Assembly: GCF_020532625.1 (NCBI RefSeq)
Contig: NZ_JAJAUY010000002.1
Coordinates: 62,001-126,000, forward strand
Length of the DNA: 64,000 bases
Reading direction: 5' to 3'
DNA from: Streptomyces antimicrobicus
GTDB lineage: Bacteria; Actinomycetota; Actinomycetes; Streptomycetales; Streptomycetaceae
Below, one piece after another: positions 1 to 17,315 of this stretch. The notes under the pieces were generated by a model. It saw only the letters and a list, made by a program, of their open reading frames with translations. It was not told the origin of the DNA and did not search any database. The translations under genes and the position numbers were made by a program. Within the stretch, counting starts at the first letter, position 1; every line of letters starts with the position of its first letter.

Positions 1-427
1 CCTCGTCACCGGTGGCCGGGCGCCGGGGGCCGACGGGCCCGGTGCCGCAGGCCGGTTCGACAGCGCCGAGCCACCCTCCGTCGAGCGGTACGCACCCACC
101 GCGGACACCTGGTCGGCCGAGGCCCCCCTGCCCGGCGCCGGCCGCAGCGGGCACCGGGCGGTGCCGCTGCGCTCGGGCCGGGTGCTGCTCACCGGTGGGA
201 CCGGCGGCCCCGGGCGCACCACCGGCTACCGCAGCACGCTGCTGTTCGACCCGGCCACGCACACCTGGACCGCCACCGGCGGGCCGGCCACCGGCCGCCA
301 CGGGTTCGCCGCCGTGGAGCTGGACGACGGCCGGGTCCTGGCCGTCGGGGGCACCGTCCGGTCCGGTCCGGCGACCCCCGACGGTGCGCGGACCACCACG
401 GCGACGGCGGAGGTCTACACCCCATGA
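1..427 (+). CDS. Kelch/galactose-oxidase-like beta-propeller protein, 3' part
   Basis: The 5' end lies outside the window; the visible frame starts at base 2 and stops with TGA at 425-427, giving about 141 residues. The sequence shows three Kelch-type blades with the GG signature followed by a Tyr/Trp pair: LVTGGRAPG, LLTGGTGG and LAVGGTVRSG, with intervening FDPATHTWTATG. Kelch repeats fold as beta-propellers used for protein or sugar binding and, in galactose oxidase relatives, for catalysis; no radical-copper residues can be judged from this fragment. No membrane segment is visible. It is translationally linked to the next genes: its stop overlaps an ATG in an ATGA at 424-427. It closely resembles the following gene in repeat spacing, so the two are probably a tandem duplication. 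It appears to be the first visible gene of the unusual five-gene block. Confidence 0.8.
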   Translation, partial: LVTGGRAPGADGPGAAGRFDSAEPPSVERYAPTADTWSAEAPLPGAGRSGHRAVPLRSGRVLLTGGTGGPGRTTGYRSTLLFDPATHTWTATGGPATGRHGFAAVELDDGRVLAVGGTVRSGPATPDGARTTTATAEVYTP

Positions 428-468
428 GCGCGCTCAGCACCACCACCACGAAGGGTTCGAGGCCATGA
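424..468 (+). CDS. possible 14-codon coupling mini-ORF between two Kelch genes
   Basis: ATG at 424 overlaps the stop of the upstream Kelch gene (ATGA), and the TGA at 466-468 overlaps the ATG of the next Kelch gene (ATGA again). The peptide would be MSALSTTTTKGSRP. It may serve only to carry ribosomes from one Kelch gene to the next, or it may be a chance product of the spacer. The AAGGG at 451-455 inside it could act as ribosome-binding site for the next gene. No homolog recognised; coding status is uncertain. Confidence 0.25.
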   Translation: MSALSTTTTKGSRP

Positions 469-1640
469 GCAGTCCCCCCGCGGCGGCCGCCGGCGGCTGG
501 ACGAAGACCGGCGACCTGCCCCTGGCAGCGAGCTGGTACGGGCAGCACGACGGAGCCGTCCTGCTGAAGAACGGCCAGGTCCTCGTCGTGGGCGGCGCGG
601 ACGCCCAGGGCCGTGCCCTGGCCAAGGGAGCCGTCTACGACCCGGCCACCGGTGCCTGGACGGCCACCACCTCGCTGCGCGACCCCCGCCGGCTGCACAC
701 CGTGACCCGGCTGGGCAACGGCAAGGTCCTCGTCACCGGAGGCACCAGCGGCCCCTCGCGGCTGTCACCGCCCCTGAACACGGTCGAGCTCTACGAGCCG
801 GGCACCGACACCTGGAAGACCGTGACCGCCATGCGCGAGGCGCGCTGCGGCCACACCGCCGTACCCCTGGACGGCACCCTGGTCCTGGTCGCCGGCGGCT
901 ACGCGGCCCGGTCGGCGACCTCCGTACGGGCCCTGCGGACCGCGGAGGTCTACGACTGGGAGGCCGACACCTGGCACGACGCCAAACCCATGAACGACGC
1001 CCGCGCGGACCACGGCGCCGTCCGCTTCAAGGCCGGCCGGGTGCTGGTGTCCGGCGGCACCGTGCCCGTCTCCCCCACCGGGGACACGGCCCTCGCCTTC
1101 TGCGAGTTGTACGACCCGGCCACGGACACCTGGACCCCCACCGGCAGCCTGCTCCAGCCGCGGGGCGGCCACCGGAGCGTCCTGGCCTCCGACACCACGG
1201 CCCTGGTGGTCGGCGGGGCGACGCCGGGCACCGCGGGCGACGGCACGTACGCCCCCTTCCGCACGCTCACGGCCGAGCGGTACGACGTCACCACGGGAGA
1301 GTGGGCGGCGCTGCCCGAGGCACCCGGCGGACGGGGCGCCCACCAGGTGGTGCCCCTGGGCACCGGCAGCTTCCTCGTCGCGGGCGGCACCGCCGACGTG
1401 CACAACGGCGCGGGCTACCAGAGCACCCTGATCCTGGACCCCGCCGCCCCCGCCGCCCGGACGTGGACCGCCGCGGCCGGCCAGCTCACCGGCCGCTGGG
1501 CGTTCGCCGCGGTCGCCCTGGACCGCAACAAGGTCCTCGTCACCGGTGGGACCGTGCAGAACGGCCTCGCCGCCCCCGACCCCGCCACCGCCGAACTCAC
1601 CCGGAGCACCGAGATCTTCACCGCCGGGAGCCCCGGATGA
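465..1640 (+). CDS. Kelch/galactose-oxidase-like beta-propeller protein (391 aa)
   Basis: Start chosen at ATG 465, preceded by AAGGG about 9 bases upstream; the open frame continues further upstream but only as a shadow of the previous gene. Seven Kelch-type blades are visible across the whole length (VVGGADAQ, VTGGTSGPS, VAGGYAAR, VSGGTVPV, VVGGATPG, VAGGTADVH, VTGGTVQNG), each with a conserved Trp near the strand end (TGAWTATT, TDTWKTVT, TDTWTPTG). Seven blades would make one complete propeller and leave almost no other domain. There is no signal peptide or membrane helix, so a cytosolic location is inferred. The stop overlaps the start of the next gene (ATGA, 1637-1640). The likely role is a binding scaffold for the giant proteins encoded downstream, which is inference from gene coupling only. 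Confidence 0.85.
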   Translation: MSSPPAAAAGGWTKTGDLPLAASWYGQHDGAVLLKNGQVLVVGGADAQGRALAKGAVYDPATGAWTATTSLRDPRRLHTVTRLGNGKVLVTGGTSGPSRLSPPLNTVELYEPGTDTWKTVTAMREARCGHTAVPLDGTLVLVAGGYAARSATSVRALRTAEVYDWEADTWHDAKPMNDARADHGAVRFKAGRVLVSGGTVPVSPTGDTALAFCELYDPATDTWTPTGSLLQPRGGHRSVLASDTTALVVGGATPGTAGDGTYAPFRTLTAERYDVTTGEWAALPEAPGGRGAHQVVPLGTGSFLVAGGTADVHNGAGYQSTLILDPAAPAARTWTAAAGQLTGRWAFAAVALDRNKVLVTGGTVQNGLAAPDPATAELTRSTEIFTAGSPG

Positions 1641-4600
1641 CCACCAACGGCTATTCCTTCCTGCCCTGGCTGCGCACCGGAATCGCCACCAGGATCGCCG
1701 ACCCGGCCGACCCGGCGGCGTACACCGCCCCGGTGACCGGGCGCGCCACCGTCCCCGTCGAACTCGACGTGACCGGGGAGCCCGTGGTCCCCGGCCCCCT
1801 GCTGCACGCGCCCGTACGGCAGCGCGTGCAGCTCTACGGGCCCGGCGACGTGATCGGCGTGGACCCCAGGGCGATCTCCCGGGTCGAGCCCCGGCCCGGG
1901 ACCACCGAGACCGAACCCAACTACCTCGCCCACATCGAGTTCTACCCCGAGGACTTCGCCTGGCGGTACAGCCCCGCCGCCCCGGACCACGGCACCGGCC
2001 GGCTGCGCCCCTGGCTCGCTCTGATCGTCCTCGAAGGACCGCAGGACACCGGCGGCCGGGGCGAGTTCGAGGAGGGCGGGCCGCCGGCCGGCCCGCTGCC
2101 GTACATCACCGTCCCCGACCCCGCCGGGTGCCTGCCGCCCGCCGAGGAGCTCGGCGCCTGGGCGCACGTCCACGTCGACACCGATCCCGGCGAACCGCTG
2201 ATCTCGGAGCCCGAGGACATGCCCGCCACCCTCGCCCGGCTGCGGGAACTGCTGCGCACCCGGCCCGACCGGGCCTGCTCCCGGATCATCAGCCCCCGCC
2301 ACCTCAGCGCGAACACCCCTTACCACGCCTTCCTCGTCCCGGCCTTCGAGACCGGGCGCCTGGCAGGGCTCGGGGAGCCGCCCGACGACACGGACGCCAC
2401 CTCGGCGAGCTGGGGACCGGGCCGGGCGGGACTGCGCCTGCCGTACTACCACCGGTGGTCGTTCCGTACGGGTTCCACCGGCGACTTCGAGGAACTGGTC
2501 CGCCGGATCCGGCCCCGCAGGCCCGATCCGCTGGTGGCCCGGCGGGAGGTCGACGTCCTGCGTCCGGAGTTCGGGCTGCCGCCGATCGACCGGCCCCCGG
2601 CCCTCGGCGGGGTGCTGCGCCTGGGCGGAGCCCTGCGGATCCCCCGGCGGACCCGGGACCTGTGGGACAACTGGGACGGCAGGTTCAGCGCACCGCCGCC
2701 CCCGCAGCCCTACCCCCACCCCTTCCAGCGTGCCCTGGCCGGACTGGTCAACCTCTCGGCGGACTACCTGCGCCGGACCCCGGCCGCGGCGCACGCCGAC
2801 CTCGCCGCCGACCTCGCCGCGCACGGCGTGACCGGCGCCGAGCCCCCGGCCCATGTCGACCCGGTCATCACCCCGCCCCTGTACGGCCGCTGGCACGCCC
2901 GGACCGACCGGCTGCTCCGCGACGGCAACGGGGCTCCGCTGCCGGAGCCGCTGGACCGCAACTGGGTGCACCGGCTGAACCTCGACCCCCGTTTCCGGGT
3001 CGCCGCGAACTTCGGCACCCAGGTGGTGCAGGCCCACCAGGAGGAGTTCATGGCCGCAGCCTGGGAGCAGGTCGGCGACGTGCTGGCCGCCAACCAGCGC
3101 ATCCGCGCCGCACAACTGGCCCGCGAGGTCGGTCACTCCCTCCAGCACAAGCACCTTTCCCCACCCGGCACGGCACCCGGCACCCAGCCCGGCACCGCAC
3201 CGGGCACCGCACTCGGCACCGGCCCCGCCCGGGGGACCGCGCCCGGCCCGCTCGCCGGACCCGACTCGGGCCGTGCCCTGCGGCTGACCGCGCCGGCCCA
3301 CTTCCGGGTCCGCTCCCCCGGCTCCTCCACGGCCCCCGGGCGGGCGGCCCTCCCCGGCGCGCCGGGGGGCGAGGTCGTCGGGCACCGGGTGGCCGGCAGC
3401 CGGGTGGCCGCCGCGCCGCTGTCGGCCGGCATGCGCCGGATGATGCGGCCGGGCTCCCGGCTGATGCGGGCCCTGTTCCCCCGGCAGTCCGGCCTCGCCG
3501 CCGCCGACCCGCCGGACGCCCTGGTCCCCAAGATGGACCGGGCCTCCGGGGCCGTCACCGCCGCCGCGCAGCGGCGGACACCGGCCGCCCTGGTGACCCC
3601 GCGCCACCTGGCCGAGGTGCTCCACCCCGGCGCGCCCCCGCCCGGCGAGGACCCGGTGGCCGAGCTGCCCACGTGCCGGGCGTTCACGATCAGCCTCCCG
3701 CAGGAGGGTGTCGTCCCCGCTCCCGGCGGACCCGACAGCGAGGAGGCGGAGCTGTTCAAGGCGGGCCTGCGGGAGAACGTCCGCAGCGGGCGGGACGCCG
3801 ACGTCGGCGCGCGGGCCCCCGCGCGCGACGAGCTCGGGGTCACCCCCACCAGCCAGGCCGTCCTGGCCGGGCTGAGCGCGGACGCCACCGTGCCGCGCAG
3901 CGTGTTCTCCGACGTCCGCCTCCCCGGCCGGCTGCGGCCGTTCGCCGAGCGGTTCCTGGAGGTCATGGCCCATCCGGTGATCGACACCCCGGCCTACCGG
4001 TGGCTGCGGGACCTCTCGGTGGACGCCTTCGTGCCCAACCTGGGGCTGGTGCCGCCGAACTCGATCACCCTGCTCACCCCCGACCAGGAGTTCATCGAGG
4101 CGTACATGGTCGGTCTCAACCATGAGATGGCCCGCGAGCTGCTCTGGCGCGAGTACCCGACCGACCTGCGGGGCACCCCGTTCCGCCAGTTCTGGGACCC
4201 ACGTGTGGACCTGCCCCGGCCCTGGGAGGACGAGGAGGAGCGGCGCGAGCGGCTGTACGACATCGCGGAGATCGCCGAGTGGGCCCCGGAGTCCGCCCTC
4301 GGGACCCACGACCACCGGGACGGGCAGCGGGCCGCCGCCGCCCGGGACGACACCGCCCAGGAGGAGGAACTCGTCCTGGTGATCCGCGGCGACCTGCTGA
4401 AGAAGTACCCGACCGCCGCCGTCTACGCCCACCGCGCCGACTGGGCGCGCGACGACGACGGCGTCCCGCACCCCGAGGCGGAGCGGGTGCTGGCCGACGT
4501 CCCCGACGGGGACCGGCCGTCTCCCGAGCTGGTCCGCCTGCCGATCTACGAGGCCACGGTCGAACCGGACATCACCCTGCTCGGCTTCGACCTGACCCCG

Positions 4601-4966
4601 ACCGCCGCCCGGGGGGCGCGCCCGACGGACCCCGGCTGGTTCTTCGTCGTCCAGGAACGCCCCGGCGACCCGCGCTTCGGCGCCGACGAGACGCCCTCGG
4701 GCCCCCTGGAGGTGTGGAACGACCTCGCCTGGAGCCACATCGATCCGCACGGCCGCCGCTTCGTCGAGCTCGACCCCGCCCGGGAACTGCCGCTCGTCCG
4801 CCCCGACGGTTCCGAGGACGACGCGGAGAAGGAGGCCCAGCGCCGCGAGGACGCGCGACTGCCTCCCTGGTCGGGGCGGCTCAGCTCCGCCGACCTCGCC
4901 TACATGCTCTTCCAAGCACCGGTGCTGGTCGCCGTGCACGCACAGGAGATGCTCCACGATGCCTGA
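1637..4966 (+). CDS. conserved giant protein of unknown function, member 1 of three (1109 aa)
   Basis: ATG 1637 overlaps the upstream stop (ATGA), with GGGAG at 1625-1629 as ribosome-binding site. I recognise no catalytic domain. Striking conserved-looking stretches are YLAHIEFYPEDFAWRY and LRPWLALIVLEGPQ near residues 95-135, AFLVPAFETGRLAGLGEPP near 230, a cysteine-poor middle, and PGWFFVVQERPGDPRFG near residue 1000. A low-complexity Pro-Gly-Thr linker (about residues 510-535) separates two globular halves. The C-terminus ends in LSSADLAYMLFQAPVLVAVHAQ. There is no signal peptide; the hydrophobic patches are too short for membrane helices. It overlaps the next gene by 8 bases, indicating co-translation with the 1758-residue and 698-residue partners. 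I believe related three-gene sets exist in other bacteria, but I know of no assigned function. Confidence 0.85.
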   Translation: MTTNGYSFLPWLRTGIATRIADPADPAAYTAPVTGRATVPVELDVTGEPVVPGPLLHAPVRQRVQLYGPGDVIGVDPRAISRVEPRPGTTETEPNYLAHIEFYPEDFAWRYSPAAPDHGTGRLRPWLALIVLEGPQDTGGRGEFEEGGPPAGPLPYITVPDPAGCLPPAEELGAWAHVHVDTDPGEPLISEPEDMPATLARLRELLRTRPDRACSRIISPRHLSANTPYHAFLVPAFETGRLAGLGEPPDDTDATSASWGPGRAGLRLPYYHRWSFRTGSTGDFEELVRRIRPRRPDPLVARREVDVLRPEFGLPPIDRPPALGGVLRLGGALRIPRRTRDLWDNWDGRFSAPPPPQPYPHPFQRALAGLVNLSADYLRRTPAAAHADLAADLAAHGVTGAEPPAHVDPVITPPLYGRWHARTDRLLRDGNGAPLPEPLDRNWVHRLNLDPRFRVAANFGTQVVQAHQEEFMAAAWEQVGDVLAANQRIRAAQLAREVGHSLQHKHLSPPGTAPGTQPGTAPGTALGTGPARGTAPGPLAGPDSGRALRLTAPAHFRVRSPGSSTAPGRAALPGAPGGEVVGHRVAGSRVAAAPLSAGMRRMMRPGSRLMRALFPRQSGLAAADPPDALVPKMDRASGAVTAAAQRRTPAALVTPRHLAEVLHPGAPPPGEDPVAELPTCRAFTISLPQEGVVPAPGGPDSEEAELFKAGLRENVRSGRDADVGARAPARDELGVTPTSQAVLAGLSADATVPRSVFSDVRLPGRLRPFAERFLEVMAHPVIDTPAYRWLRDLSVDAFVPNLGLVPPNSITLLTPDQEFIEAYMVGLNHEMARELLWREYPTDLRGTPFRQFWDPRVDLPRPWEDEEERRERLYDIAEIAEWAPESALGTHDHRDGQRAAAARDDTAQEEELVLVIRGDLLKKYPTAAVYAHRADWARDDDGVPHPEAERVLADVPDGDRPSPELVRLPIYEATVEPDITLLGFDLTPTAARGARPTDPGWFFVVQERPGDPRFGADETPSGPLEVWNDLAWSHIDPHGRRFVELDPARELPLVRPDGSEDDAEKEAQRREDARLPPWSGRLSSADLAYMLFQAPVLVAVHAQEMLHDA
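3170..3240 (+). repeat. degenerate 9-12 bp tandem repeat encoding a Pro-Gly-Thr linker
   Basis: Repeated units of the type CCCGGCACC/GCACCGGGCACC encode PGTAPGTQPGTAPGTALGT inside the 1109-residue protein. The repeat keeps the reading frame and probably forms a flexible inter-domain linker whose length may vary between strains. Confidence 0.7.
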
Positions 4967-7900
4967 CCAGCTCAGCGACGCCTACCCGGTCCTGCTCGGA
5001 CCCGTCCGCGTCGAGACCCGGTTCACCGAGGACCGCCTCCTGGTCCGCGTGTTCCCCGACGAATGGGCCGTCGACGCCGCGGAGCAGCTGCCCAGCGAGG
5101 CCGAGTTCAGCGCCCTCACCGCCTACTGGACCGGGGTGTGGCGGGCAGCCGGCGACGCCGGCGCGGAGCGGGTCGCCTGGCAGGAGTTCACCCGGCGGGT
5201 CGCGCCCGGCCGGGCCACCTGGCTCCGGGACACCCACCGCCCCGCCGACCCCGGCGACCGCCCGAGCGGCTTGCCGGAGCGGACCACCGTCCTGGTCGTC
5301 ACGACCACGGCCGCCCTCCCCGCCGCCGACCGGCAGCCCACCGTCGCCTACTGGACCGCCGTGTGGCGGGCCCACGGGGACCGGGCCCGGCTCCGGGCGG
5401 CCGAAGCGGCACTGCTCGCCGCCGTGGGCCCGGCCCGCGCCCGTACGGTCCGCGCGCGGCCGCCGGCCGGGATCGACGCGGCACCGCTGGTGTCCGGCGA
5501 CGGGGTGGTGGTGGCCTTCCTGGTCGTACCGCGCCCCGCGGCCCTCGCCGCCGACTCCTGGACCCGGGCGGCGCGGGCGCGGCTGCTCCCCGACCGGATC
5601 ACCGTCCTCGGCTTCACGGGCGGCCGGCGGATGTTCTCCGTGACGGGCGCGCCGATCCCCGCCGAGCTGGCCGTCGGCCCCGACCCCGGCGCGGAGGACA
5701 AGCCGCGGGTGGACGAGGACAGCGGCGCTCTGCACGTGCCGGACGACCTGGCATGGCTCACCGACTTCGACGCCGCCGTCGCCGTGGGCATGGGCGTACG
5801 CGTCCCGCTGGACGAGCACACCCGCGACGGGGTGGAGCGGCTGATCGTCCTCGGGCTGCGGCGCGGCCGGGGTCCGCAGGACTCCGCCACCGCCCTCACC
5901 GACCTGATCGGCCGGCAGCTGCGCAGCCCCGCGGGTTTCGCCCTCGTACCGCAGGGCACGCCGACCAACAACACCGAGGCCGCCCCGGCGGGCCAGGACC
6001 CGCACACCGAGGCCCTGGCCGGGCTCCGTACCGCCGAGGGGGCCGGGCCCGCCGCGGCCGCCGACTGGACGGCCCGGACCGACGGCCAGTGCCTGGCCGA
6101 ACTGCTCGGCATCGACCCCACCGCCCTGGTGGCGGTGCCCCACGCCGACGGCACCGACCAGCGCGACGCCCGCGCCGCCAACACCGCGCTGTGGCCCGCC
6201 ACCTGGGGCGGCTTCCTGAGCACCGCCCTGCACCCGGTGGTCACCGACCAGGACGCGGCACGCACCCGCGACTTCTTCCTGCGCCACGTCTCGGGTCGCG
6301 GCCCGGTCCCCGCCGTCCGCATCGGCCGGCAGCCGTACGGGATCCTGCCGACCACCGCCTTCACCCGGCTGACGTGGCCGGCCGGCCCCACCGCGGCCCA
6401 CCGCACCGCCCTGCACCACCTGCTCACGGCGGTGCGGGAGGACTGGCGGACCGCGTCCGCGCGGGTCGCCCGCCTCGACTCCGGCAGCCCCGACCCGCAC
6501 CAGCGGCTCCTGGACATCCTCGCCCTGCACCCGACCTCCGCCGAGTACCACCAGCGGTACGCCCGCAGCGTCGCCGACCTCTACAACCAGGAGAACCTCG
6601 CGGGCCGCGGCCCCGACGTGACCGCGGCCCTGACCGACCGGCTCCACCTGGCGCGGCCGCTGAACGCCCTCCTGGCCCGCCTCGGCTACGACACCCGGCC
6701 ACCGGGCGGGCCCGCCCGTCCCGAACCCGAGCTGTTCCACCGCCTCTTCGAGGACACCGCACGCCCGCTGCTCGGCCCCCTCGTCGACGACCGCCCCCTG
6801 TCCGAGACCGACCGGCTGCGCCCGTGCACCACCCCGCCCACGCCCCTGAACTACCTCCACTGGCTCGCCGCGGCCGGGCGCCGCGACCTGGACCTGGTCC
6901 GCCTGGAGGACGGCTTCGCCGCGGGCCCTCCGGCGGCCCTGCTGTACCTGCTCGTCCGCCACGCCGTCCTGCTCGGCTGGGAGGAGACCGGTCGGCGGCT
7001 CGCCGTCGCCGCCGGCCGGACGCCGGTCCCTGCGGTGGACCCGCCGTTCATCCACGTCAGGACGCAGCGGCCCGGTGAGCCGGACCCGCCCGTGAGCGAG
7101 AGCCGCTACCGGCAGCTCTACGCGCCCGACCCCGCCGTCACCGGCAGCACCGACCCCCAGCGCCTGGTCCACCAGCACGTTCCCGGGATCCTGGGCACCC
7201 ACCCCGCCACCAGCGAGCTCGACGAGCAGCTGCGCGCCGTCGCCCTGCTGGGCGACCTGCCGACCGCAAAGCTGGAGCGGTTGCTCGCCGAGCACATCGA
7301 CTGCGCCACGTACCGCTTCGACGCCTGGTGGCTGGGCCTGGCCAACGAGCGGCTGGCCGAGCTGAGGTACGGCCCCGACGGCACCGGCACCCCCACCAGG
7401 GGCGTGCACCTGGGCTGTTACGGGTGGCTGGAGGAGGTACGGCCCCGGCGCGTGCCGCTGCCGCGGGTGGCGGTCCCGGCCGACCTCACCCGTGTGTTCG
7501 GTGACGACCCGGTGCCCCACGACCCCGGCAACGGCGGCTACGTGCACGCCCCGTCGCCCGCACACGCGCGCACCGCCGCCGTCCTGCGGGCCGGGTACAC
7601 GGCCAACGGTTCCCGGGAGAACGCCCGTTCCTTCGCGGTGAACCTCAGCTCCGAGCGCGTCAGGACCGCCCTGGCGCTGCTCGACGGACTGCGGCAGGGC
7701 CAGTCGCTGGGCGCCCTGCTCGGCCACCGCTTCGAACGGGGGCTGCACGAGCGGCGGCCCGGCAGCCGGCCACCCGGGGTCGAGCTCGACAAGTTCCTGC
7801 CGGCCCTGCGCGCCGCGTTCCCGATGCGCGCGGGCAAGCTCTCCCCGGTGGTCCCCGGCCCCGGCGTGCCCCTCGACGTCGTGGAGGCCCGCAACGTCGT

Positions 7901-10235
7901 CGACGGCCTCGCCCTCGTCCAGCGCGCGACCCGCACCCCCGGCGGCGCCACCTACCCCTTCGGCGCCGCGGACATGCCGCCCGCCACCACCGACGAGGCC
8001 CTGGCGCTGGAGGACGAGGTGCGCCGGCTGCTCCACCTGCACGACGCGCTCGCCGACCTCGCCGTCGCCGAAGGCGCCCATCAGGCCCTGCTCGGCAACA
8101 CCGACCGCGCCTCGGTCACCCTCGACGCCTACGCCAAGGACGGCGTCCCGCCCGAACCCGCCGTCGTGGCCACCCCACGCGGCGGCACCACGCTCACCCA
8201 CCGCTTCGGCATCCAGCTCACCGCCGGTCTCCGGGCGGACCACCTGCCGCCGCTCTACTTCGGCGACAGCCCGCGCGCCAAGGCGGAGCCGGCCGTGAAC
8301 GACTGGCTGCCGACCCTGCTCCCCGCGCAGCGGGACGTGGCCGCGCTCGTCACCTGGCCCGACCCGCTCGGCGGCGCACCCCACCAGCGCGTCGTCACCC
8401 AGGCGGACCTCGCGCTGCAGCCCCTCGACCTGCTGTGGGCCGTCCGCCCCGGGGACCACACGGCCATGACGGACCTGGACGACCGGATCATCGGCGTGGT
8501 GACCCGCGAGGAACGCCCCCGCCCCGACGTCGCCCTCACCATCCGGTACACCCGGCGGGTACCGGACAAGATCACCTTCTTCGAACTGTCCCCGCTCCTC
8601 GACGCGCTGCGCACGCTCTTCACCACCTCCCGCCCGCTGCGCCCCACCGACCTCCTCCCCGCCGCCGGCACCACGGCCGTCGACCGGTCCGCCGACGACG
8701 CCGTCGCCGTCTCCCGCGACCGGCTCTCCGCCGTCCACGACGCCCTCACGGCCCTGCGCACGCAGGTGACCGACCGGTCCGCGGAGCTGAGCCGGCTCTA
8801 CCCCGCCGCTCCCGCCCCGCCCCTGCGCGCCGAGGTGCTCGACCGGATCGACGTCCTGCTCGCCGGGTACGCGCAGCTGTGCACCACGGCGGGCGGCTTC
8901 GGGATGCCGCGCAGCGGCTGGGGCGAACTGACCGCCTGGCGGCGGGAGGTGTACGCCGCCCTGCTGGCCGCGGTCGCCACGGCGGCCGGGCGCATGGACC
9001 GTGCGCTCGGCCAGGCAGACCAGCTCCTGCACGACGAGCGGGCCCTGCCGCCCACCGCCCCCGACGAGGACCGCTTCCGCCTGCTGGAGACGGCGGAGCG
9101 GCTGTTGACGACCGCGCCCACGACCCCCCGCCCGGACCGCCCCGCCGCGTTGCGCGCGATCGTCACCAACCGGCGCACGGCCTTCACCGGCCGCCTCGCG
9201 GACCTCAGGAGCGTGGCCCGGACCGGCCGGGACACCCTGGCCGGCCTCCTCGCCGAGATCCGCGGGTACCTGCCGCTGGACGGCTTCGACCCCGTCGGCC
9301 TGGACCTGACCCCGTTCGAGGACCGGATCGTGGACCACGGACGGGAACTGCTCCGCCGTACCAAGGCGCTGGGCGAGGCCGTCGACGAGCGGCTCAAGGA
9401 CGCCGGCACCGCCCTCGGCGCGTACGACGCCGCGCCGCCCGGCCCGGAACGGGTACGGTGCGCCACCGACACCCTCAAGGCGCTGCTGGGACCGGACGCC
9501 CTGGTCGTACCCGAGTTCACCCCGACCGCGGCACTGGCCGGGGACTGGGACCGGGCCCGGGCCGACAGCGAGCGGCTCGTCGCCCACCTCACGGACGACT
9601 TTGGCCGGGACTTCCCCGTCGACGACTGGCTGCACGGCATCGCCCGCGTGCGCGACAAGCCCCGGCTGTGGGAGAAGGCCGTGGTCCTCGCCGACGCGCT
9701 GCGCGGCCCGGGCGGGCTGATGAGCGACATCGCCGGCACGGCGGACCCCGCCCTGACCCCCGTGCAGCTCCCCTACCGCCCGGGGGACAGCTGGGCGGCC
9801 ATGGAGTTCAAGGCCGGGGCCCGTCCGACCGAGGACCGGGTGCTGTTCACCGCCCACTACGCCCCGGCCCCGCCGGGCCTGCCCACCGCGCCCCGCTGCG
9901 GGCTGCTGTTCGACGAGTGGACCGAGGTCGTGCCGTCCGACAGCGAGACCACCGGCATCGCCCTGCACTACGACGGCCCCGACTCGGAACCGCCGCAGGC
10001 GATGCTGCTGGTGGTGCCCCCGGCCCGCACCGGCACCTGGGACGAGGACGACCTCGTGGCCGCCGTCCAGGAGACCCTGGACCTCGCCGCGTTGCGGGCG
10101 GTGGAGCCGGACCACCTCGACGACACGGCGTACGCCCATCTGCTCCCGGCCACCGTGCTCTCCGCGACCCGCCGGCCGATCACGATCAGCACCGATCTGG
10201 CACTCGGCAACCTGCGAGGGAAGACCCATGCCTGA
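4959..10235 (+). CDS. conserved giant protein of unknown function, member 2 of three (1758 aa)
   Basis: Starts at ATG 4959, 8 bases inside the preceding gene, with AGGAG about 10 bases upstream. The N-terminus carries PVLLGPVRVETRFTEDRLLVRVFPDEWAVD, split here as PVRVETRF and LLVRVFPDEW. Two related segments of the type YWTxVWRA (residues about 50 and 130) hint at an internal duplication. Later landmarks are RIGRQPYGILPTTAF (about 450), FDAWWLGLANERLAELR (about 785), RSFAVNLSSERVR (about 890), a long helical, coiled-coil-like part at about 1240-1540 rich in Arg, Leu and Asp, and CGLLFDEWTEVVPSDSETTG near 1650. No signal peptide, transmembrane helix, nucleotide-binding loop or protease motif is seen. 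Size, gene order and overlap suggest a structural subunit assembled with its neighbours; this is inference. Confidence 0.85.
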   Translation: MPDQLSDAYPVLLGPVRVETRFTEDRLLVRVFPDEWAVDAAEQLPSEAEFSALTAYWTGVWRAAGDAGAERVAWQEFTRRVAPGRATWLRDTHRPADPGDRPSGLPERTTVLVVTTTAALPAADRQPTVAYWTAVWRAHGDRARLRAAEAALLAAVGPARARTVRARPPAGIDAAPLVSGDGVVVAFLVVPRPAALAADSWTRAARARLLPDRITVLGFTGGRRMFSVTGAPIPAELAVGPDPGAEDKPRVDEDSGALHVPDDLAWLTDFDAAVAVGMGVRVPLDEHTRDGVERLIVLGLRRGRGPQDSATALTDLIGRQLRSPAGFALVPQGTPTNNTEAAPAGQDPHTEALAGLRTAEGAGPAAAADWTARTDGQCLAELLGIDPTALVAVPHADGTDQRDARAANTALWPATWGGFLSTALHPVVTDQDAARTRDFFLRHVSGRGPVPAVRIGRQPYGILPTTAFTRLTWPAGPTAAHRTALHHLLTAVREDWRTASARVARLDSGSPDPHQRLLDILALHPTSAEYHQRYARSVADLYNQENLAGRGPDVTAALTDRLHLARPLNALLARLGYDTRPPGGPARPEPELFHRLFEDTARPLLGPLVDDRPLSETDRLRPCTTPPTPLNYLHWLAAAGRRDLDLVRLEDGFAAGPPAALLYLLVRHAVLLGWEETGRRLAVAAGRTPVPAVDPPFIHVRTQRPGEPDPPVSESRYRQLYAPDPAVTGSTDPQRLVHQHVPGILGTHPATSELDEQLRAVALLGDLPTAKLERLLAEHIDCATYRFDAWWLGLANERLAELRYGPDGTGTPTRGVHLGCYGWLEEVRPRRVPLPRVAVPADLTRVFGDDPVPHDPGNGGYVHAPSPAHARTAAVLRAGYTANGSRENARSFAVNLSSERVRTALALLDGLRQGQSLGALLGHRFERGLHERRPGSRPPGVELDKFLPALRAAFPMRAGKLSPVVPGPGVPLDVVEARNVVDGLALVQRATRTPGGATYPFGAADMPPATTDEALALEDEVRRLLHLHDALADLAVAEGAHQALLGNTDRASVTLDAYAKDGVPPEPAVVATPRGGTTLTHRFGIQLTAGLRADHLPPLYFGDSPRAKAEPAVNDWLPTLLPAQRDVAALVTWPDPLGGAPHQRVVTQADLALQPLDLLWAVRPGDHTAMTDLDDRIIGVVTREERPRPDVALTIRYTRRVPDKITFFELSPLLDALRTLFTTSRPLRPTDLLPAAGTTAVDRSADDAVAVSRDRLSAVHDALTALRTQVTDRSAELSRLYPAAPAPPLRAEVLDRIDVLLAGYAQLCTTAGGFGMPRSGWGELTAWRREVYAALLAAVATAAGRMDRALGQADQLLHDERALPPTAPDEDRFRLLETAERLLTTAPTTPRPDRPAALRAIVTNRRTAFTGRLADLRSVARTGRDTLAGLLAEIRGYLPLDGFDPVGLDLTPFEDRIVDHGRELLRRTKALGEAVDERLKDAGTALGAYDAAPPGPERVRCATDTLKALLGPDALVVPEFTPTAALAGDWDRARADSERLVAHLTDDFGRDFPVDDWLHGIARVRDKPRLWEKAVVLADALRGPGGLMSDIAGTADPALTPVQLPYRPGDSWAAMEFKAGARPTEDRVLFTAHYAPAPPGLPTAPRCGLLFDEWTEVVPSDSETTGIALHYDGPDSEPPQAMLLVVPPARTGTWDEDDLVAAVQETLDLAALRAVEPDHLDDTAYAHLLPATVLSATRRPITISTDLALGNLRGKTHA

Positions 10236-12324
10236 ACCCTCCGGCCCGGACCCGTCCGGCCCCGACCTGTCCGGCCCCGATCCCGTCGGCCCCGACCCCG
10301 TCGGCTCCGACCCTGCCGGCCTGCGCATCGAGCGGCTGCGCGAGGCGCTCGACGACCGGCTCGCCCCCACCGTCGGCCTGTGGAACCGGCTCGAAGGCCG
10401 CCCCCGGACCGCCGACTTCGGGCGCGCCCTGCGGGTGGAGGTCCGCGACCCGCTGTGGATGCTCACCCGGCAGTGGCAGCTCGGTGAGTTCCGGGCCGCC
10501 GACGCCGGCTCGCCCGTGACCGCCACGTACGCGGTCGTGTCCGCGCCCACCACCCTCGTCCGCCCCGGCGAGCACGGCGCCACCGAGCGGTTCACCGCCG
10601 ACCGGCCGCTGGAGGCGGTGGCCGAACGCCGCGCGCTGCCCCTGGCCTTCGGCCCCGAACGGATCGGCTTCGACCTGCGTCTGGCCATCGGCCGGCGCTG
10701 GCTCAAGCTCGTGGCCCGCAACCGCCTGGTCAACGCGGTCAACCTGAACGTACGCCGCCAGTACGTGGACCGCTATCCGGTCCCGCTGCCCGACCCGGAG
10801 GCCGAGGACGACGCCCCGCGCGTGGCGCACCCCGAGGTCTGGTCGGTCTTCCAGGCGGTCGCGGGCCGCCGGATGGACGGGTACGAGTTCTACCGCCGGC
10901 TCACCGCGGGCATGCCCGCCTACGAAGGCATCTCCGGGATCGGCGACCTGCACCGCGACGAGCTGGTCAAGCTGGGCGAGCGGCTGGTGGCCTGGTTCGA
11001 CGACCTCATCGACCGCCCCGCCCCGCTCCCCGCCCCACCGCCCGGGGGCCCGTCCGCCGGAGGCCCGTCCGTCGAGGGCCCGTCCGCCGGGGGCCCGTCC
11101 GCCGGGGGCCGGGACAACGCTGCCTGGGACCCGGCCCGCCTCGAACACCGGCTGGCCATCCGTACGGCGGACCGGCACGACGGCGCGGGCGCGCGCGTCC
11201 TGTCGGCCCCCGAGTACCCCGGAGGCAGCCTCGACTGGCACGCGTTCTCGGTCGACCCCCACACCCGGCTCGATCCCCCCGCCCCCGGGAGCCCGCCGGC
11301 GCAGCTCCCGCGGGTGTTCAACCGTACGGTCTTCCCCGCGCCGGTCCGCTACTCCGGGATGCCGCTGCCCCGCTGGTGGGCGCTGGAGGACGGCCGTACC
11401 AACTTCGCCGCGGTCCGCCCCGACAGCACCGACCTGGCCCGGCTGGTCTTCCTGGAATTCGCCCTGGTCTACAGCAACGACTGGTACCAGCTGCCCTGCG
11501 ACCTGCCCGCCGGGACCTTGGCCACCGTCCAGGGCCTGACCGTGACCGACGTGTTCGGGGAACGGCTGTGGATCAGCCCTGCGGGGACCGGCCCGGACGT
11601 GACCTGGCAGGACTGGTCGATGTTCACCCTCAACACCCTCGGCGACACCGCGAAGGCGCCGCCACCGGCCGGCCCCGCCGCCGCCCCCGGGCAGGACACC
11701 GGCCCCGCCCCGGGCCTGCTGCTGCCGGGCAGCGTGCCGAAGGTCGCCGAGGGGCCCGTACTGGAGGAGGTCGCGCTCGTCCGCGACGAGACGAGCAACC
11801 TCGTGTGGGGCATCGAGCAGACGGTCACCCTGGCCACCGGTGAACCGCGCCGCGGCAGCGAGGCCGCGGCCGAACGCCTCGCCCATCTGCTCCGCCTGAA
11901 CCCGCCCCCGCAGCCGCCCCCGGCCGCGGCCCCCGTGGCGTACACCGTCATGAACGCGATCCCGGAGAACTGGATCCCGTTCGTCCCCGTCCACGTGCCC
12001 GAACAGAACCGCGCCATCCAGCTCCAGCGCGCCGCGCTGCCCAGCGTGCTGGGCGGCGGCCGGATCGTCACCCCGCGGACCTCGCTGCTGCGCGAGGGCC
12101 TGGACCGGGGCGACCGGTACTTCGTCAACGAGGAGGAGGTGCCGCCGACCGGCACCCGGCTCTCCCTGTCGTACAACCGGACCCGCTGGACCGACGGCCG
12201 GGTGGCGCTCTGGCTGAGCGCCCGGCGCCGCACGGGCCGCGGTGAGGCGTCCAGTGGGCTCGCCTTCGACTTCCTCAAGGACACCACCACGCCACCGGCC
12301 CCGCCTCCGACCGGCAGCAGGTAG
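10228..12324 (+). CDS. conserved large protein of unknown function, member 3 of three (698 aa)
   Basis: ATG 10228 overlaps the preceding stop by 8 bases and follows a GAGGGAAG ribosome-binding site. Residues 2-30 are a Pro-Ser-Gly-Pro-Asp repeat, then comes a compact module with GLWNRLEGRPRTADFGRAL and DPLWMLTRQWQLGEFRAADA (about residues 48-90). VNAVNLNVRRQYVDRYPV lies near 172, a second low-complexity linker (GGPSAGGPSVEGPSAGG) near 272-292, and FALVYSNDWYQLPCDLPAG plus VTDVFGERLWI near 410-450. No catalytic or membrane features were recognised. It is the last gene of the block and is followed by a strong hairpin terminator. The two repeat linkers match the style of the linker in member 1, which supports a shared modular architecture. 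Confidence 0.85.
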   Translation: MPEPSGPDPSGPDLSGPDPVGPDPVGSDPAGLRIERLREALDDRLAPTVGLWNRLEGRPRTADFGRALRVEVRDPLWMLTRQWQLGEFRAADAGSPVTATYAVVSAPTTLVRPGEHGATERFTADRPLEAVAERRALPLAFGPERIGFDLRLAIGRRWLKLVARNRLVNAVNLNVRRQYVDRYPVPLPDPEAEDDAPRVAHPEVWSVFQAVAGRRMDGYEFYRRLTAGMPAYEGISGIGDLHRDELVKLGERLVAWFDDLIDRPAPLPAPPPGGPSAGGPSVEGPSAGGPSAGGRDNAAWDPARLEHRLAIRTADRHDGAGARVLSAPEYPGGSLDWHAFSVDPHTRLDPPAPGSPPAQLPRVFNRTVFPAPVRYSGMPLPRWWALEDGRTNFAAVRPDSTDLARLVFLEFALVYSNDWYQLPCDLPAGTLATVQGLTVTDVFGERLWISPAGTGPDVTWQDWSMFTLNTLGDTAKAPPPAGPAAAPGQDTGPAPGLLLPGSVPKVAEGPVLEEVALVRDETSNLVWGIEQTVTLATGEPRRGSEAAAERLAHLLRLNPPPQPPPAAAPVAYTVMNAIPENWIPFVPVHVPEQNRAIQLQRAALPSVLGGGRIVTPRTSLLREGLDRGDRYFVNEEEVPPTGTRLSLSYNRTRWTDGRVALWLSARRRTGRGEASSGLAFDFLKDTTTPPAPPPTGSR
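10237..10319 (+). repeat. 15-bp tandem repeat, N-terminal Pro-Ser/Val-Gly-Pro-Asp linker
   Basis: About five to six imperfect copies of a 15-base unit (type GACCCGTCCGGCCCC) encode PSGPDPSGPDLSGPDPVGPD at the start of the 698-residue protein. In-frame periodicity suggests expansion and contraction is tolerated; it may tether the protein to a partner. Confidence 0.75.
11041..11112 (+). repeat. 15-bp tandem repeat, internal Gly-Gly-Pro-Ser linker
   Basis: Four to five copies of GGCCCGTCCGCCGGG-like units encode GGPSAGGPSVEGPSAGGPSA. It divides the 698-residue protein into two halves and keeps frame. Confidence 0.75.
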
Positions 12325-16288: not shown

Positions 16289-17074
16289 GTGGTGGATGCG
16301 GGACGACGCGCCGTCTCGGCGGCGCTGCTGACCGGCGTGCTGGTGTCCGGCTCGCGCGCCGTGGCCGCGCCGACGGGCCCGGAGCGCAGGGCCGGAGCCG
16401 GGGCCAGGGCCGCGGCAGGTCCTCGGCCGGCGGCTTCGCTGCTCGGGCAGGAGATCCGGCGGTTGCCCACGTCCCGCAGGGTGGTGGCGCTCACCTTCAA
16501 CGCGGCGTGGGACGAGAGCGGACTGGACACGGTCCTGGCGGAGTTGCGGCGGCGGAAGGCGCCCGCCACGTTCTTCCCGACGGGGACGTACGCGGAGGCC
16601 CGTCCGGCGGCCGTACGGGCCATGGCCGAGGCCGGGCACGGGCTGGGCAACCACTCGTACAGCCACCCGTACTTCGACGATCTGAGCACGCAGGAGCGGG
16701 CGCGGGAGGTCCGCGCGGCGGACGTGGCGATCCGGACGGCGTCCGGGGTCGAGCCCCTGCCGTTCTTCCGCTTCCCGTACAGCTCCACGACGCAGGACGC
16801 GGTCGCGGACGTCAACGAGCTGGGCTATGCGGCGATCGAGTTCACCAACGACACGAACGGCTACCTGGGGCCGGCCGGCGGGATGACCGTGGACAAGGTC
16901 GTCCGCAGGGCGGTGGGCTCGCTGGGGCCGGGGGCCGTGCTGCAGATGCATGTCGGGAGCAGCGCGGATGACGGGGTGGTGCTCGACGCCCAGGCCCTGC
17001 CCCGGATCGTCGACGCGGTGATGGAGGAGGGGTACGAGGTCGTGGACCTGCGGGAGTTCCTCGTGGCGTCGTAG
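16289..17074 (+). CDS. secreted polysaccharide deacetylase, CE4/NodB family (261 aa)
   Basis: Several GTG codons are possible; GTG 16289 is preferred because GAGGGAG sits 8 bases upstream, giving a signal peptide (Arg-Arg, then AVSAALLTGVLVSGSRAVAA). The NodB domain covers about residues 60-255: motif 1 reads VVALTFNAAWDESGLD, motif 2 NHSYSHPYFDDL with the two metal-binding His, motif 3 FFRFPYSS, and motif 5 VLQMHVGS. In motif 1 the usual TFDDG is replaced by TFNAAWDE, a variant seen in several actinobacterial members, so the catalytic Asp/metal Asp pair is not standard. The likely role is N-deacetylation of cell-wall or extracellular aminoglycan. It stands alone, upstream of the MscS channel gene by 241 bases. 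Confidence 0.88.
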   Translation: MVDAGRRAVSAALLTGVLVSGSRAVAAPTGPERRAGAGARAAAGPRPAASLLGQEIRRLPTSRRVVALTFNAAWDESGLDTVLAELRRRKAPATFFPTGTYAEARPAAVRAMAEAGHGLGNHSYSHPYFDDLSTQERAREVRAADVAIRTASGVEPLPFFRFPYSSTTQDAVADVNELGYAAIEFTNDTNGYLGPAGGMTVDKVVRRAVGSLGPGAVLQMHVGSSADDGVVLDAQALPRIVDAVMEEGYEVVDLREFLVAS

Positions 17075-17315
17075 CAGCGGGGCCGGGCGAGCGGGAGCCG
17101 ACGGGCGGGGCAGGGCCGCGCCGGCCCTGATGCCCGGGCCCGGTTGTGGCGGCGTGCCGGTCATGGTCCAGGATGGCAGTCCGTTCGGAATGCGTACGTC
17201 CGCTCCAACCGCGCTACGCACCACACGATCTGACAGGTGAACAAGTGACCACACGACACATACGGCGGCCCGCGGCGGGCTGCTCCCTGGCCCTCCACGC
17301 TGCGGGGGCAGGACG

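What the first reader, a model, noticed from the sequence alone, without database searches (positions are those of the whole stretch)
1..12324. Five-gene coupled block of two Kelch propellers and three giant proteins without known function
Two Kelch-repeat genes and three very long genes (1109, 1758 and 698 aa) run in one direction with 4-8 base overlaps, so they are made together. The giant proteins have intact, well-conserved-looking stretches (LRPWLALIVLEG, PVRVETRFTEDRLL, LWMLTRQWQLGEF, NDWYQLPCDL, CGLLFDEWTEV) and low-complexity linkers, but no enzyme motif, signal peptide or membrane segment. Their size, order and coupling suggest a cytosolic multi-subunit assembly with the propellers as scaffold. 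I know of no described system of this composition. What it does (storage body, injection-like particle, surface-independent enzyme complex) cannot be told from sequence alone.
Basis: partly seen in the sequence, partly recalled or inferred. Interest (0 to 1): 0.85.

Follow-up and report, generated by a model that had tools for sequence, protein, structure and literature searches.

The report
Protein machine with swappable enzyme cassette
The block is part of a previously undescribed protein machine, shared by very different bacteria and salt-loving archaea, whose body stays the same while the enzyme it carries (mostly protein-cutting enzymes, sometimes lipid-cutting or other ones) is exchanged like a cartridge; how it is used is not yet known.

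Summary
The first "Kelch gene" is the tail of a 1556-aa DUF6603 protein (A) that starts 4.2 kb outside the window; two trypsin-like genes precede it. A-B-C-D is a syntenic four-gene module (549 matches in GTDB genomes; best 80 and 12 plasmid loci read; at least seven bacterial phyla plus haloarchaea). B, C and D match no curated family or solved protein. Kelch is an actinobacterial add-on.

New result: the gene just upstream of A is an enzyme in 46 of 55 genomes (17 subtilases, 12 trypsin-like, 11 M64 peptidases, 3 PLD, 2 PhoD-like, 1 copper oxidase). Enzyme and the N-terminal half of A travel together: enzyme class changes at least 25 times on trees of B or of A's C-half, but 10 times (minimum 9) on A's N-half. 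Two Amycolatopsis share flanks and A's C-half at one chromosomal site but not the cassette. A's C-half is modelled as an amphipathic beta-meander.

Best reading: a constant chassis carrying exchangeable hydrolases, with A as cognate adaptor. Chassis-plus-cassette is well supported; delivery or suicide use is inferred. The searches made here found no published description.

The parts
1..427 (+). C-terminal Kelch part of protein A (DUF6603, 1556 aa, starts at contig C112:57757 = window -4243). A residues 1-500: variable half, enzyme-matched; 501 onward: constant half with most of the DUF6603 beta-meander
465..1640 (+). K, 391-aa Kelch-repeat protein, homologous to the Kelch tail of A; seen only in actinobacterial modules
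1637..4966 (+). B, 1109 aa, chassis protein (LRPWLALIVLEG family); remote relative Q in a second DUF6603 module type
4959..10235 (+). C, 1758 aa, chassis protein, with a helical-bundle-like stretch around profile positions 1250-1500
10228..12324 (+). D, 698 aa, chassis protein (DPLWMLTRQWQLGEF family), last gene of the module; no confident fold match

Best explanation
The block is the chassis of a modular protein assembly. Constant parts are the C-terminal half of A (an amphipathic beta-meander in the model), B, C and D, with Kelch propellers added in Actinomycetota. A cassette upstream supplies one to three enzymes, mostly peptidases, and the N-terminal half of A that fits them; the cassette is exchanged by recombination with a breakpoint near A residue 490. 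[Shown here by comparative genomics.] I infer that A's N-half binds its cognate enzyme and loads it onto the A(C-half)-B-C-D body, which keeps the enzyme soluble and latent in the cytosol. I further infer that the hydrophobic face of A engages lipid or a membrane when the assembly is triggered or released, so that the enzyme is brought to its target. [Binding, latency, membrane contact and use are inferred.] In the window's genome the loaded enzymes would be two trypsin-like proteases, each with a His motif and GDSG, that share a C-terminal 'WHR' domain.
For: Synteny A-B-C-D in 80 loci as far as contigs reach and in 11 of 12 plasmid loci fetched. Co-occurrence in 296 genomes of the phylum: PF20248 9, D 7, both 6; 0.2 expected by my arithmetic (D scored for at most 4 candidates a genome). 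Enzyme directly upstream of A in 46 of 55 genomes; control: 3 hits of the class models in 1.50 Mb of D-centred loci, none next to D. At least 11 slot genes overlap the start of A by 4-11 bases, stop codon counted. Nearest-neighbour rows share enzyme class in 39-43 of 44 for A 1-500, 15-19 of 43-44 for A 501-1000, 13-23 of 42-44 for B; label shuffles average 10.5, maximum 22-23. Tree changes: 10 on A 1-480 (minimum 9), 25 on A 520-1000, 25 on B. Amycolatopsis pair L165/L169 at one site: upstream flank 88-94% DNA identity, no DNA match across the enzyme and the first ~1.4-1.5 kb of A, then 90%; A protein 25% versus 95%. WHR domain: 15 hits in 10 of 30 module genomes, all just upstream of A; in 296 genomes only the window's own (at most 15 candidates a genome scored). 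DUF6603 model: beta-meander, closest apoB-100 belt (Foldseek E 3e-4; Z 17), then porins (Z 12-14); strands one-face hydrophobic, 3.08 versus 1.30 shuffled.
Against: No direct evidence of complex formation, latency, lipid binding or secretion. 9 of 55 slots had no assigned enzyme (one is a WD40 protein), and of 11 plasmid modules only 4 have an assigned slot enzyme (L014, L015, L020, L023). L016, L018 and L026 show no co-directional gene directly upstream; L024 has a subtilase downstream of D. Physical linkage plus homology-driven recombination could by itself carry enzyme and A N-half together. The WHR domain barely predicts A N-half similarity (WHR-subtilase to trypsin-like 0.28, plain subtilase to trypsin-like 0.24). 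10 of the 16 seed rows of the WHR alignment come from genomes then searched, so only 5 of the 15 hits (G065, G074, G088) are new. In the Amycolatopsis pair B-C-D are themselves only 78-82% identical in DNA, less than A's C-half and the flanks. The DUF6603 model is moderate (pLDDT 75, pTM 0.54, 24 rows, N-half missing); its matches have rmsd 9-14 A, and the tool warns that middling Z values may reflect a common arrangement. Two PLD slots and the copper oxidase have internal hydrophobic stretches. I did not search specifically for exporters, lysis or immunity genes; no neighbour family recurred widely.
Confidence: 0.58

Rival explanations
1. Protease-triggered pore (works like gasdermin systems): the upstream protease is the activator, cutting A so that its amphipathic beta-meander inserts into the cell's own membrane; B, C, D and propellers are sensor and scaffold. 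The enzyme class varies because the trigger varies.
For: 40 of 55 slots are peptidases of three unrelated types. Fungal gasdermins sit next to variable proteases, about 60% S8 and about 17% CHAT (passages of PMC10989679). DUF6603 C-half resembles membrane barrels and the apoB belt.
Against: PLD, PhoD-like and copper-oxidase slots (6 of 55) are not known to cleave proteins. Some cassettes hold 2-3 enzymes in tandem (L114, L120, L163, L167). No gasdermin-like match was among those listed.
Confidence: 0.22
2. Released injection or toxin particle (works like eCIS or Tc complexes): assembled in the cytosol, freed by lysis, delivering the cassette enzyme into other cells. This is a narrower version of the best explanation, so the odds are not exclusive.
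For: In the assigned slot enzymes listed, hydropathy of the first 60 residues stays under 2.0, a crude sign of no signal peptide; exchangeable cargo; surface-type domains annotated in archaeal or distant members such as lamin-tail, BGTF, VCBS, peptidoglycan-binding; GH25 lysozyme genes near the Rhizobium module; two Hcp-like genes beside a type II DUF6603 module.
Against: No contractile sheath beside any of 51 modules and none in the window's genome; no neighbour family recurs widely after D; D has no viral-structure match at E <= 0.001.
Confidence: 0.2
3. The upstream enzyme is a processing protease that matures the assembly and is not a payload.
For: Most slots are proteases; tight packing with A; the matched N-half of A could be the substrate.
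Against: Non-protease slots; frequent replacement by unrelated enzyme types; tandem copies.
Confidence: 0.1
4. One reading: a propeller-scaffolded storage body or enzyme complex.
For: Kelch domains in A and K; no enzyme family in B, C, D.
Against: Kelch is missing in the modules of other phyla; the exchangeable enzyme slot is unexplained by it.
Confidence: 0.05

Closest known systems
DUF6603 (PF20248)
   Same: A carries it over the curated cut-off (416 vs 27 bits); found in all 50 module genomes searched
   Different: Pfam gives no function; no paper in the library holds the term
Gasdermin plus neighbouring protease pairs (fungal HET-Q1/HET-Q2 type; PMC10989679, passages read)
   Same: variable protease (S8, others) next to a candidate membrane-active beta protein
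   Different: no gasdermin match listed; three further giant conserved proteins; non-protease enzymes; enzyme co-inherited with half of A
Polymorphic toxins (recalled) and eCIS (papers seen only in a search listing)
   Same: constant machine, exchangeable effector, wide spread across phyla
   Different: variable part is a separate upstream gene plus the N-half of A; no sheath beside it; no recurrent immunity-like neighbour
NTP-dependent conflict systems of multicellular bacteria (PMC7159879, passages read)
   Same: multicellular bacteria, trypsin-like peptidase effectors, propellers
   Different: no NTPase, vWA or MoxR family found in this module
ApoB-100 beta-belt and porins
   Same: long amphipathic beta-meander in the model
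   Different: rmsd 9-14 A and 3-11% identity: shared architecture at most

Membership tests
DUF6603 (PF20248) | score over the curated cut-off | tested here: met
   416 bits against 27, positions 1-501 of 502
DUF6603 A-B-C-D module (defined here) | same-strand order A-B-C-D | tested here: met
   80 loci as far as contigs reach; 11 of 12 plasmid loci, the twelfth holding D alone
Contractile injection system (eCIS, T6SS, tailocin) | contractile sheath gene in or beside the locus | tested here: not met
   PF04984: own genome 0; 28 of 51 module genomes have a hit, each on another contig or at least 100 kb from the module
Contractile injection system (eCIS, T6SS, tailocin) | phage-tail homology of components | tested here: not met
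   PHROGs: nothing better than E 0.02 for B, C, D; the meaningful hits of A lie in its Kelch region
Tc toxin complex | TcA/TcB/TcC-type domains | tested here: not met
   no such Pfam family listed for A (first 1414 aa), K, B, C, D
Gasdermin | gasdermin fold in the pore protein | tested here: inconclusive
   not among listed PDB matches of a moderate DUF6603 model
Gasdermin | adjacent protease gene | tested here: met
   40 of 55 slots are peptidases; activation by cleavage not tested
Polymorphic toxin system | variable C-terminal toxin domain with adjacent immunity gene | tested here: not met
   variable unit is upstream enzyme plus A N-half; no widely recurrent neighbour family after D
NTP-dependent conflict system | NTPase core component | tested here: not met
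   no NTPase Pfam hit in A-D or in the slot genes scanned
Known anti-phage defence system | PADLOC model match | tested here: not met
   only LmuC at E 0.066 to D
Known anti-phage defence system | protects against phage | not testable with these tools
   needs a bench test

The most novel reading that the evidence does not exclude
A new class of prokaryotic nanomachine: a soluble A-B-C-D particle with an apoB- or porin-like lipid-engaging beta-sheet, loaded through an adaptor half that is swapped together with its enzyme (three unrelated peptidase types, phospholipase D, PhoD-like phosphatase, copper oxidase), used either to kill an infected cell from within or to attack other cells. It would be a natural plug-in protein-carrier platform spanning bacteria and archaea.
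Probability: 0.4. Interest if true: 0.95.

Novelty: categorically new. Interest (0 to 1): 0.83.

Why it matters
It defines a widespread but, as far as these searches show, undescribed machine with a built-in rule for exchanging enzymes. If A's N-half is the adaptor, each natural cassette gives a matched enzyme-adaptor pair, so the binding rule can be tested at once. It gives DUF6603 and three large orphan families a common context, and it adds a possible new kind of effector carrier or suicide device to multicellular bacteria and haloarchaea.

Tried and rejected
Known families: Pfam, NCBIfam, PHROGs, PADLOC for B, C, D: nothing of note (all 35 members of the B alignment against Pfam). PDB by sequence profile: nothing for B, D, DUF6603; helical-bundle hits for C (best E 0.0004, a three-helix bundle) and weak ones for WHR. 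D model against PDB and the viral library: no match at E <= 0.001, best VIA Z 4.4 over 82 residues; a missing match does not show a new fold. Phage origin: one unverified faecal 'phage' scaffold with B-C-D and one short IMG/VR contig; not followed. Conserved gene after D: none; the largest non-Kelch neighbour family reaches 9 of 94 loci. WHR as sole docking signal: weakly supported. Type II protein R as a relative of C or D: no.

Motif check (narrow patterns): subtilase triad met in 7 of 17 slot subtilases; M64 HExxH in 10 of 10 listed (L120 not listed by the script, HELVH visible); PLD HKD in 3 of 3; His plus GDSG in 5 of 16 listed trypsin-like copies, the window's two judged by eye. So either patterns were too strict or some enzymes are degenerate.

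Literature: no paper holds DUF6603; the listings of the other searches showed no description of the module. Passages of PMC10989679 and PMC7159879 were read; all other papers were seen as listings only. The library holds open-licence PMC papers, no preprints.

Census limits: the 55 genomes are the window's own, 50 of the 80 loci that I chose for diversity, and 4 of the phylum sample (L146-L149). Six type II loci (L108-L113) were left out. Unassigned: L115, L123, L127, L130, L137, L143, L145, L147, L148 (L148 has M23-like and SLT genes next in line). The trypsin-like class has no Pfam hit over cut-off (NAL1_N 18.8 vs 27) and rests on similarity and motifs. M64 in L132 and PhoD in L146 are below cut-off; L151, L154, L156, L159 (S8), L157, L160, L161, L169 (M64) and L164 (PLD) are by similarity to confirmed members. 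Trees used 49 rows, quick method without mixture model, with long-branch warnings; L029, L102 and L146-L149 were not in them; slots U115, U123, U137, U145 were kept as classes of their own. Slot genes were called by my own codon-usage script, so starts are approximate. The 18 of 44 matches of A's C-half lie about two standard deviations over the shuffles, as shared ancestry would give. The PF20248-only genome G333 and the D-only genome G356 (590 contigs) were not examined further.

Corrections made on re-reading: overlaps of slot genes restated with the stop codon counted; plasmid slots (4 of 11) added; plasmid synteny is 11 of 12.
Full report
OBSERVATION. The window holds B (1637-4966), C (4959-10235) and D (10228-12324) with 8-base overlaps and K (465-1640) overlapping B by 4 bases. 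The first Kelch 'gene' is the end (1-427) of protein A, 1556 aa, which begins at C112:57757 outside the window and carries DUF6603 (416 bits) plus Kelch. A and K are 37 bases apart. Two tandem trypsin-like genes lie directly upstream of A, each with a His motif (NQHVL, CQHVI) and GDSG. The true operon is Z1-Z2-A-K-B-C-D.

CO-OCCURRENCE. A D alignment that included plasmid relatives found 549 confirmed matches in GTDB genome contigs; the best 80 were returned. In these, C is detected in 79 and B in 71, upstream on the same strand; the loci that lack one are those whose contig ends first. They span Actinomycetota, Chloroflexota, Bacteroidota, Cyanobacteriota, Myxococcota, Acidobacteriota and Pseudomonadota, by their record titles. 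Of 12 plasmid loci fetched, 11 have A-B-C-D, among them haloarchaea, Gemmatirosa, Rhizobium and Nocardia; the twelfth has D alone. In a 296-genome sample of the window's phylum PF20248 occurs in 9, D in 7, both in 6 (only up to 4 candidates a genome were scored for D, so 7 is a lower bound). Of the three PF20248-only genomes two (L108, L109) carry a second module type and one (G333) was not examined; the D-only genome G356 is in 590 contigs. All 50 module genomes searched with PF20248 have it. A Kelch signal is seen upstream of B in 38 of 80 loci, all actinobacterial.

NO KNOWN RELATIVES. B, C, D: no family over cut-off in Pfam or NCBIfam and nothing of note in PHROGs or PADLOC, and no solved relative beyond helical-bundle hits to C. 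D was modelled (pLDDT 77, pTM 0.76); no Foldseek match at E <= 0.001 in PDB or viral models, best VIA Z 4.4. A second module type has a giant DUF6603 protein and protein Q, a remote relative of B (probability 94.6, E 7e-8); its protein R matches neither C nor D.

THE ENZYME SLOT. I read the gene directly upstream of A in 55 genomes. Assigned: subtilase S8 17, trypsin-like 12, M64 peptidase 11, phospholipase D 3, PhoD-like 2, glyoxal/galactose oxidase 1; nine unassigned, one of them a WD40 protein (Pfam; similarity). Several cassettes hold two or three tandem enzymes. Among 11 plasmid modules only 4 have an assigned slot enzyme (trypsin-like in L020 and L023, PhoD-like in L014 and L015), so the rule is firm in the main clade and looser in distant ones. 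At least 11 slot genes overlap the start of A by 4-11 bases, counting the stop codon. In the assigned slot enzymes listed, the highest 15-residue hydropathy in the first 60 residues is under 2.0, a crude sign that signal peptides are absent; two PLD proteins and the copper oxidase have internal hydrophobic stretches. As a control, models of these classes found 3 subtilases and nothing else in the 80 D-centred loci, 1.50 Mb, none directly next to D. A shared C-terminal domain ('WHR', alignment A5) ends trypsin-like proteins and part of the subtilases. In 30 module genomes it has 15 hits in 10 genomes, all within about 3.3 kb upstream of the DUF6603 domain on the same strand; 5 of these hits, in 3 genomes, were not in the seed alignment. 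In 296 genomes of the phylum only the window's genome has it (up to 15 candidates a genome scored).

CASSETTE EXCHANGE. On a tree of B (49 rows) the slot class changes at least 25 times. On trees of A the count is 25 for residues 520-1000 but 10 for residues 1-480, where 9 is the minimum for ten classes. Nearest-neighbour rows share the class in 39-43 of 44 cases in every 100-residue window of A 1-500, and in 15-19 of 43-44 beyond it; B gives 13-23 of 42-44. Shuffled labels give 10.5 on average, at most 22-23 in 2000. The step lies between residues about 470 and 510. Two of the three exceptions in A 1-480 pair classes U115 and U123, whose cassettes seem by eye to share a second small gene. In Amycolatopsis orientalis and Amycolatopsis sp. 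WAC 01376 the module sits at the same site: upstream flank 88-94% identical, no DNA match across the enzyme gene and the first ~1.4-1.5 kb of A, then 90%; downstream flank 93-96%; B-C-D 78-82%. A is 25% identical in its N-half and 95% in its C-half; one cassette is trypsin-like, the other M64. The cassette unit is thus enzyme plus A N-half.

PROTEIN A. The C-half (query from Microtetraspora, 24 rows) is modelled as a run of about 20 strands, pLDDT 75, pTM 0.54. Closest are apoB-100 (Foldseek E 3e-4, the only match at E <= 0.001; VIA Z 17, rmsd 8.9 A over 275 residues) and porins (Z 12-14, rmsd 10-14 A); the tool warns that middling Z values can reflect a common arrangement. Strand faces differ in mean hydropathy by 3.08 against 1.30 for shuffled strands; 13 of 20 strands pass p < 0.05 on their own. 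This suggests, and does not prove, a lipid- or membrane-engaging surface.

MECHANISM. Shown: constant chassis, exchangeable enzyme plus matched A N-half, tight gene packing. Inferred from co-inheritance: A N-half binds the enzyme. Inferred from the model: the C-half engages lipid. Inferred from the lack of signal-peptide-like starts: assembly in the cytosol. Use is open: suicide or defence (gasdermin-like logic; protease-pore pairs, PMC10989679 passages), or delivery to other cells. A caution: homologous recombination needs conserved sequence, which begins at A residue about 490, so linkage may help to keep enzyme and N-half together; but N-halves are 34-74% identical within enzyme classes and 23-29% between them, while C-halves are 57-78% identical throughout (class means), which is what matched partners would show.

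COMPARISON. It works partly like gasdermin-protease pairs and like polymorphic-effector machines, but it is a member of neither by the features tested. Sheath hits exist in 28 of 51 module genomes but on other contigs or at least 100 kb from the module, and not in the window's genome. The NTP-dependent conflict systems (PMC7159879, passages) share peptidase effectors and a multicellular habit but have an NTPase that was not found here.

VERDICT.

Noticed in passing
L108-L113: Second DUF6603 module type: giant DUF6603 protein (about 1390-3230 aa), in most of these loci followed by a B-like protein Q and a large orphan R.
   Followed up: partly
L109:13915-14391 and 16704-17189 (minus strand): Two Hcp-like genes (PF05638) upstream of a 3233-aa DUF6603 protein.
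   Followed up: no
L115, L123, L127: Cassettes without a Pfam enzyme; L115 shows SHGN and RGCRVG motifs that look like a clan CD cysteine peptidase (recalled motif), and a second small gene seems shared by all three.
   Followed up: no
L085:6658-8701: Streptomyces sp. WAC06614 carries a near-identical module in which D is split into two overlapping reading frames.
   Followed up: no
L013:17986-19788: Streptomyces anthocyanicus plasmid keeps a D gene alone a few kb from IS5 transposases, apparently a remnant.
   Followed up: no
L017 (MT835531, faecal 'Bacteriophage sp.' scaffold): B-C-D genes on an unverified phage scaffold; only one short IMG/VR hit otherwise (L107).
   Followed up: partly
L024:18963-22673: Nocardia plasmid module has its annotated S8 peptidase gene downstream of D instead of upstream of A.
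   Followed up: no
L014, L022, L025: Haloarchaeal D proteins are annotated with lamin-tail domains and their C-type genes reach about 2300-3200 aa; Salinigranum has a PhoD-like slot gene.
   Followed up: partly
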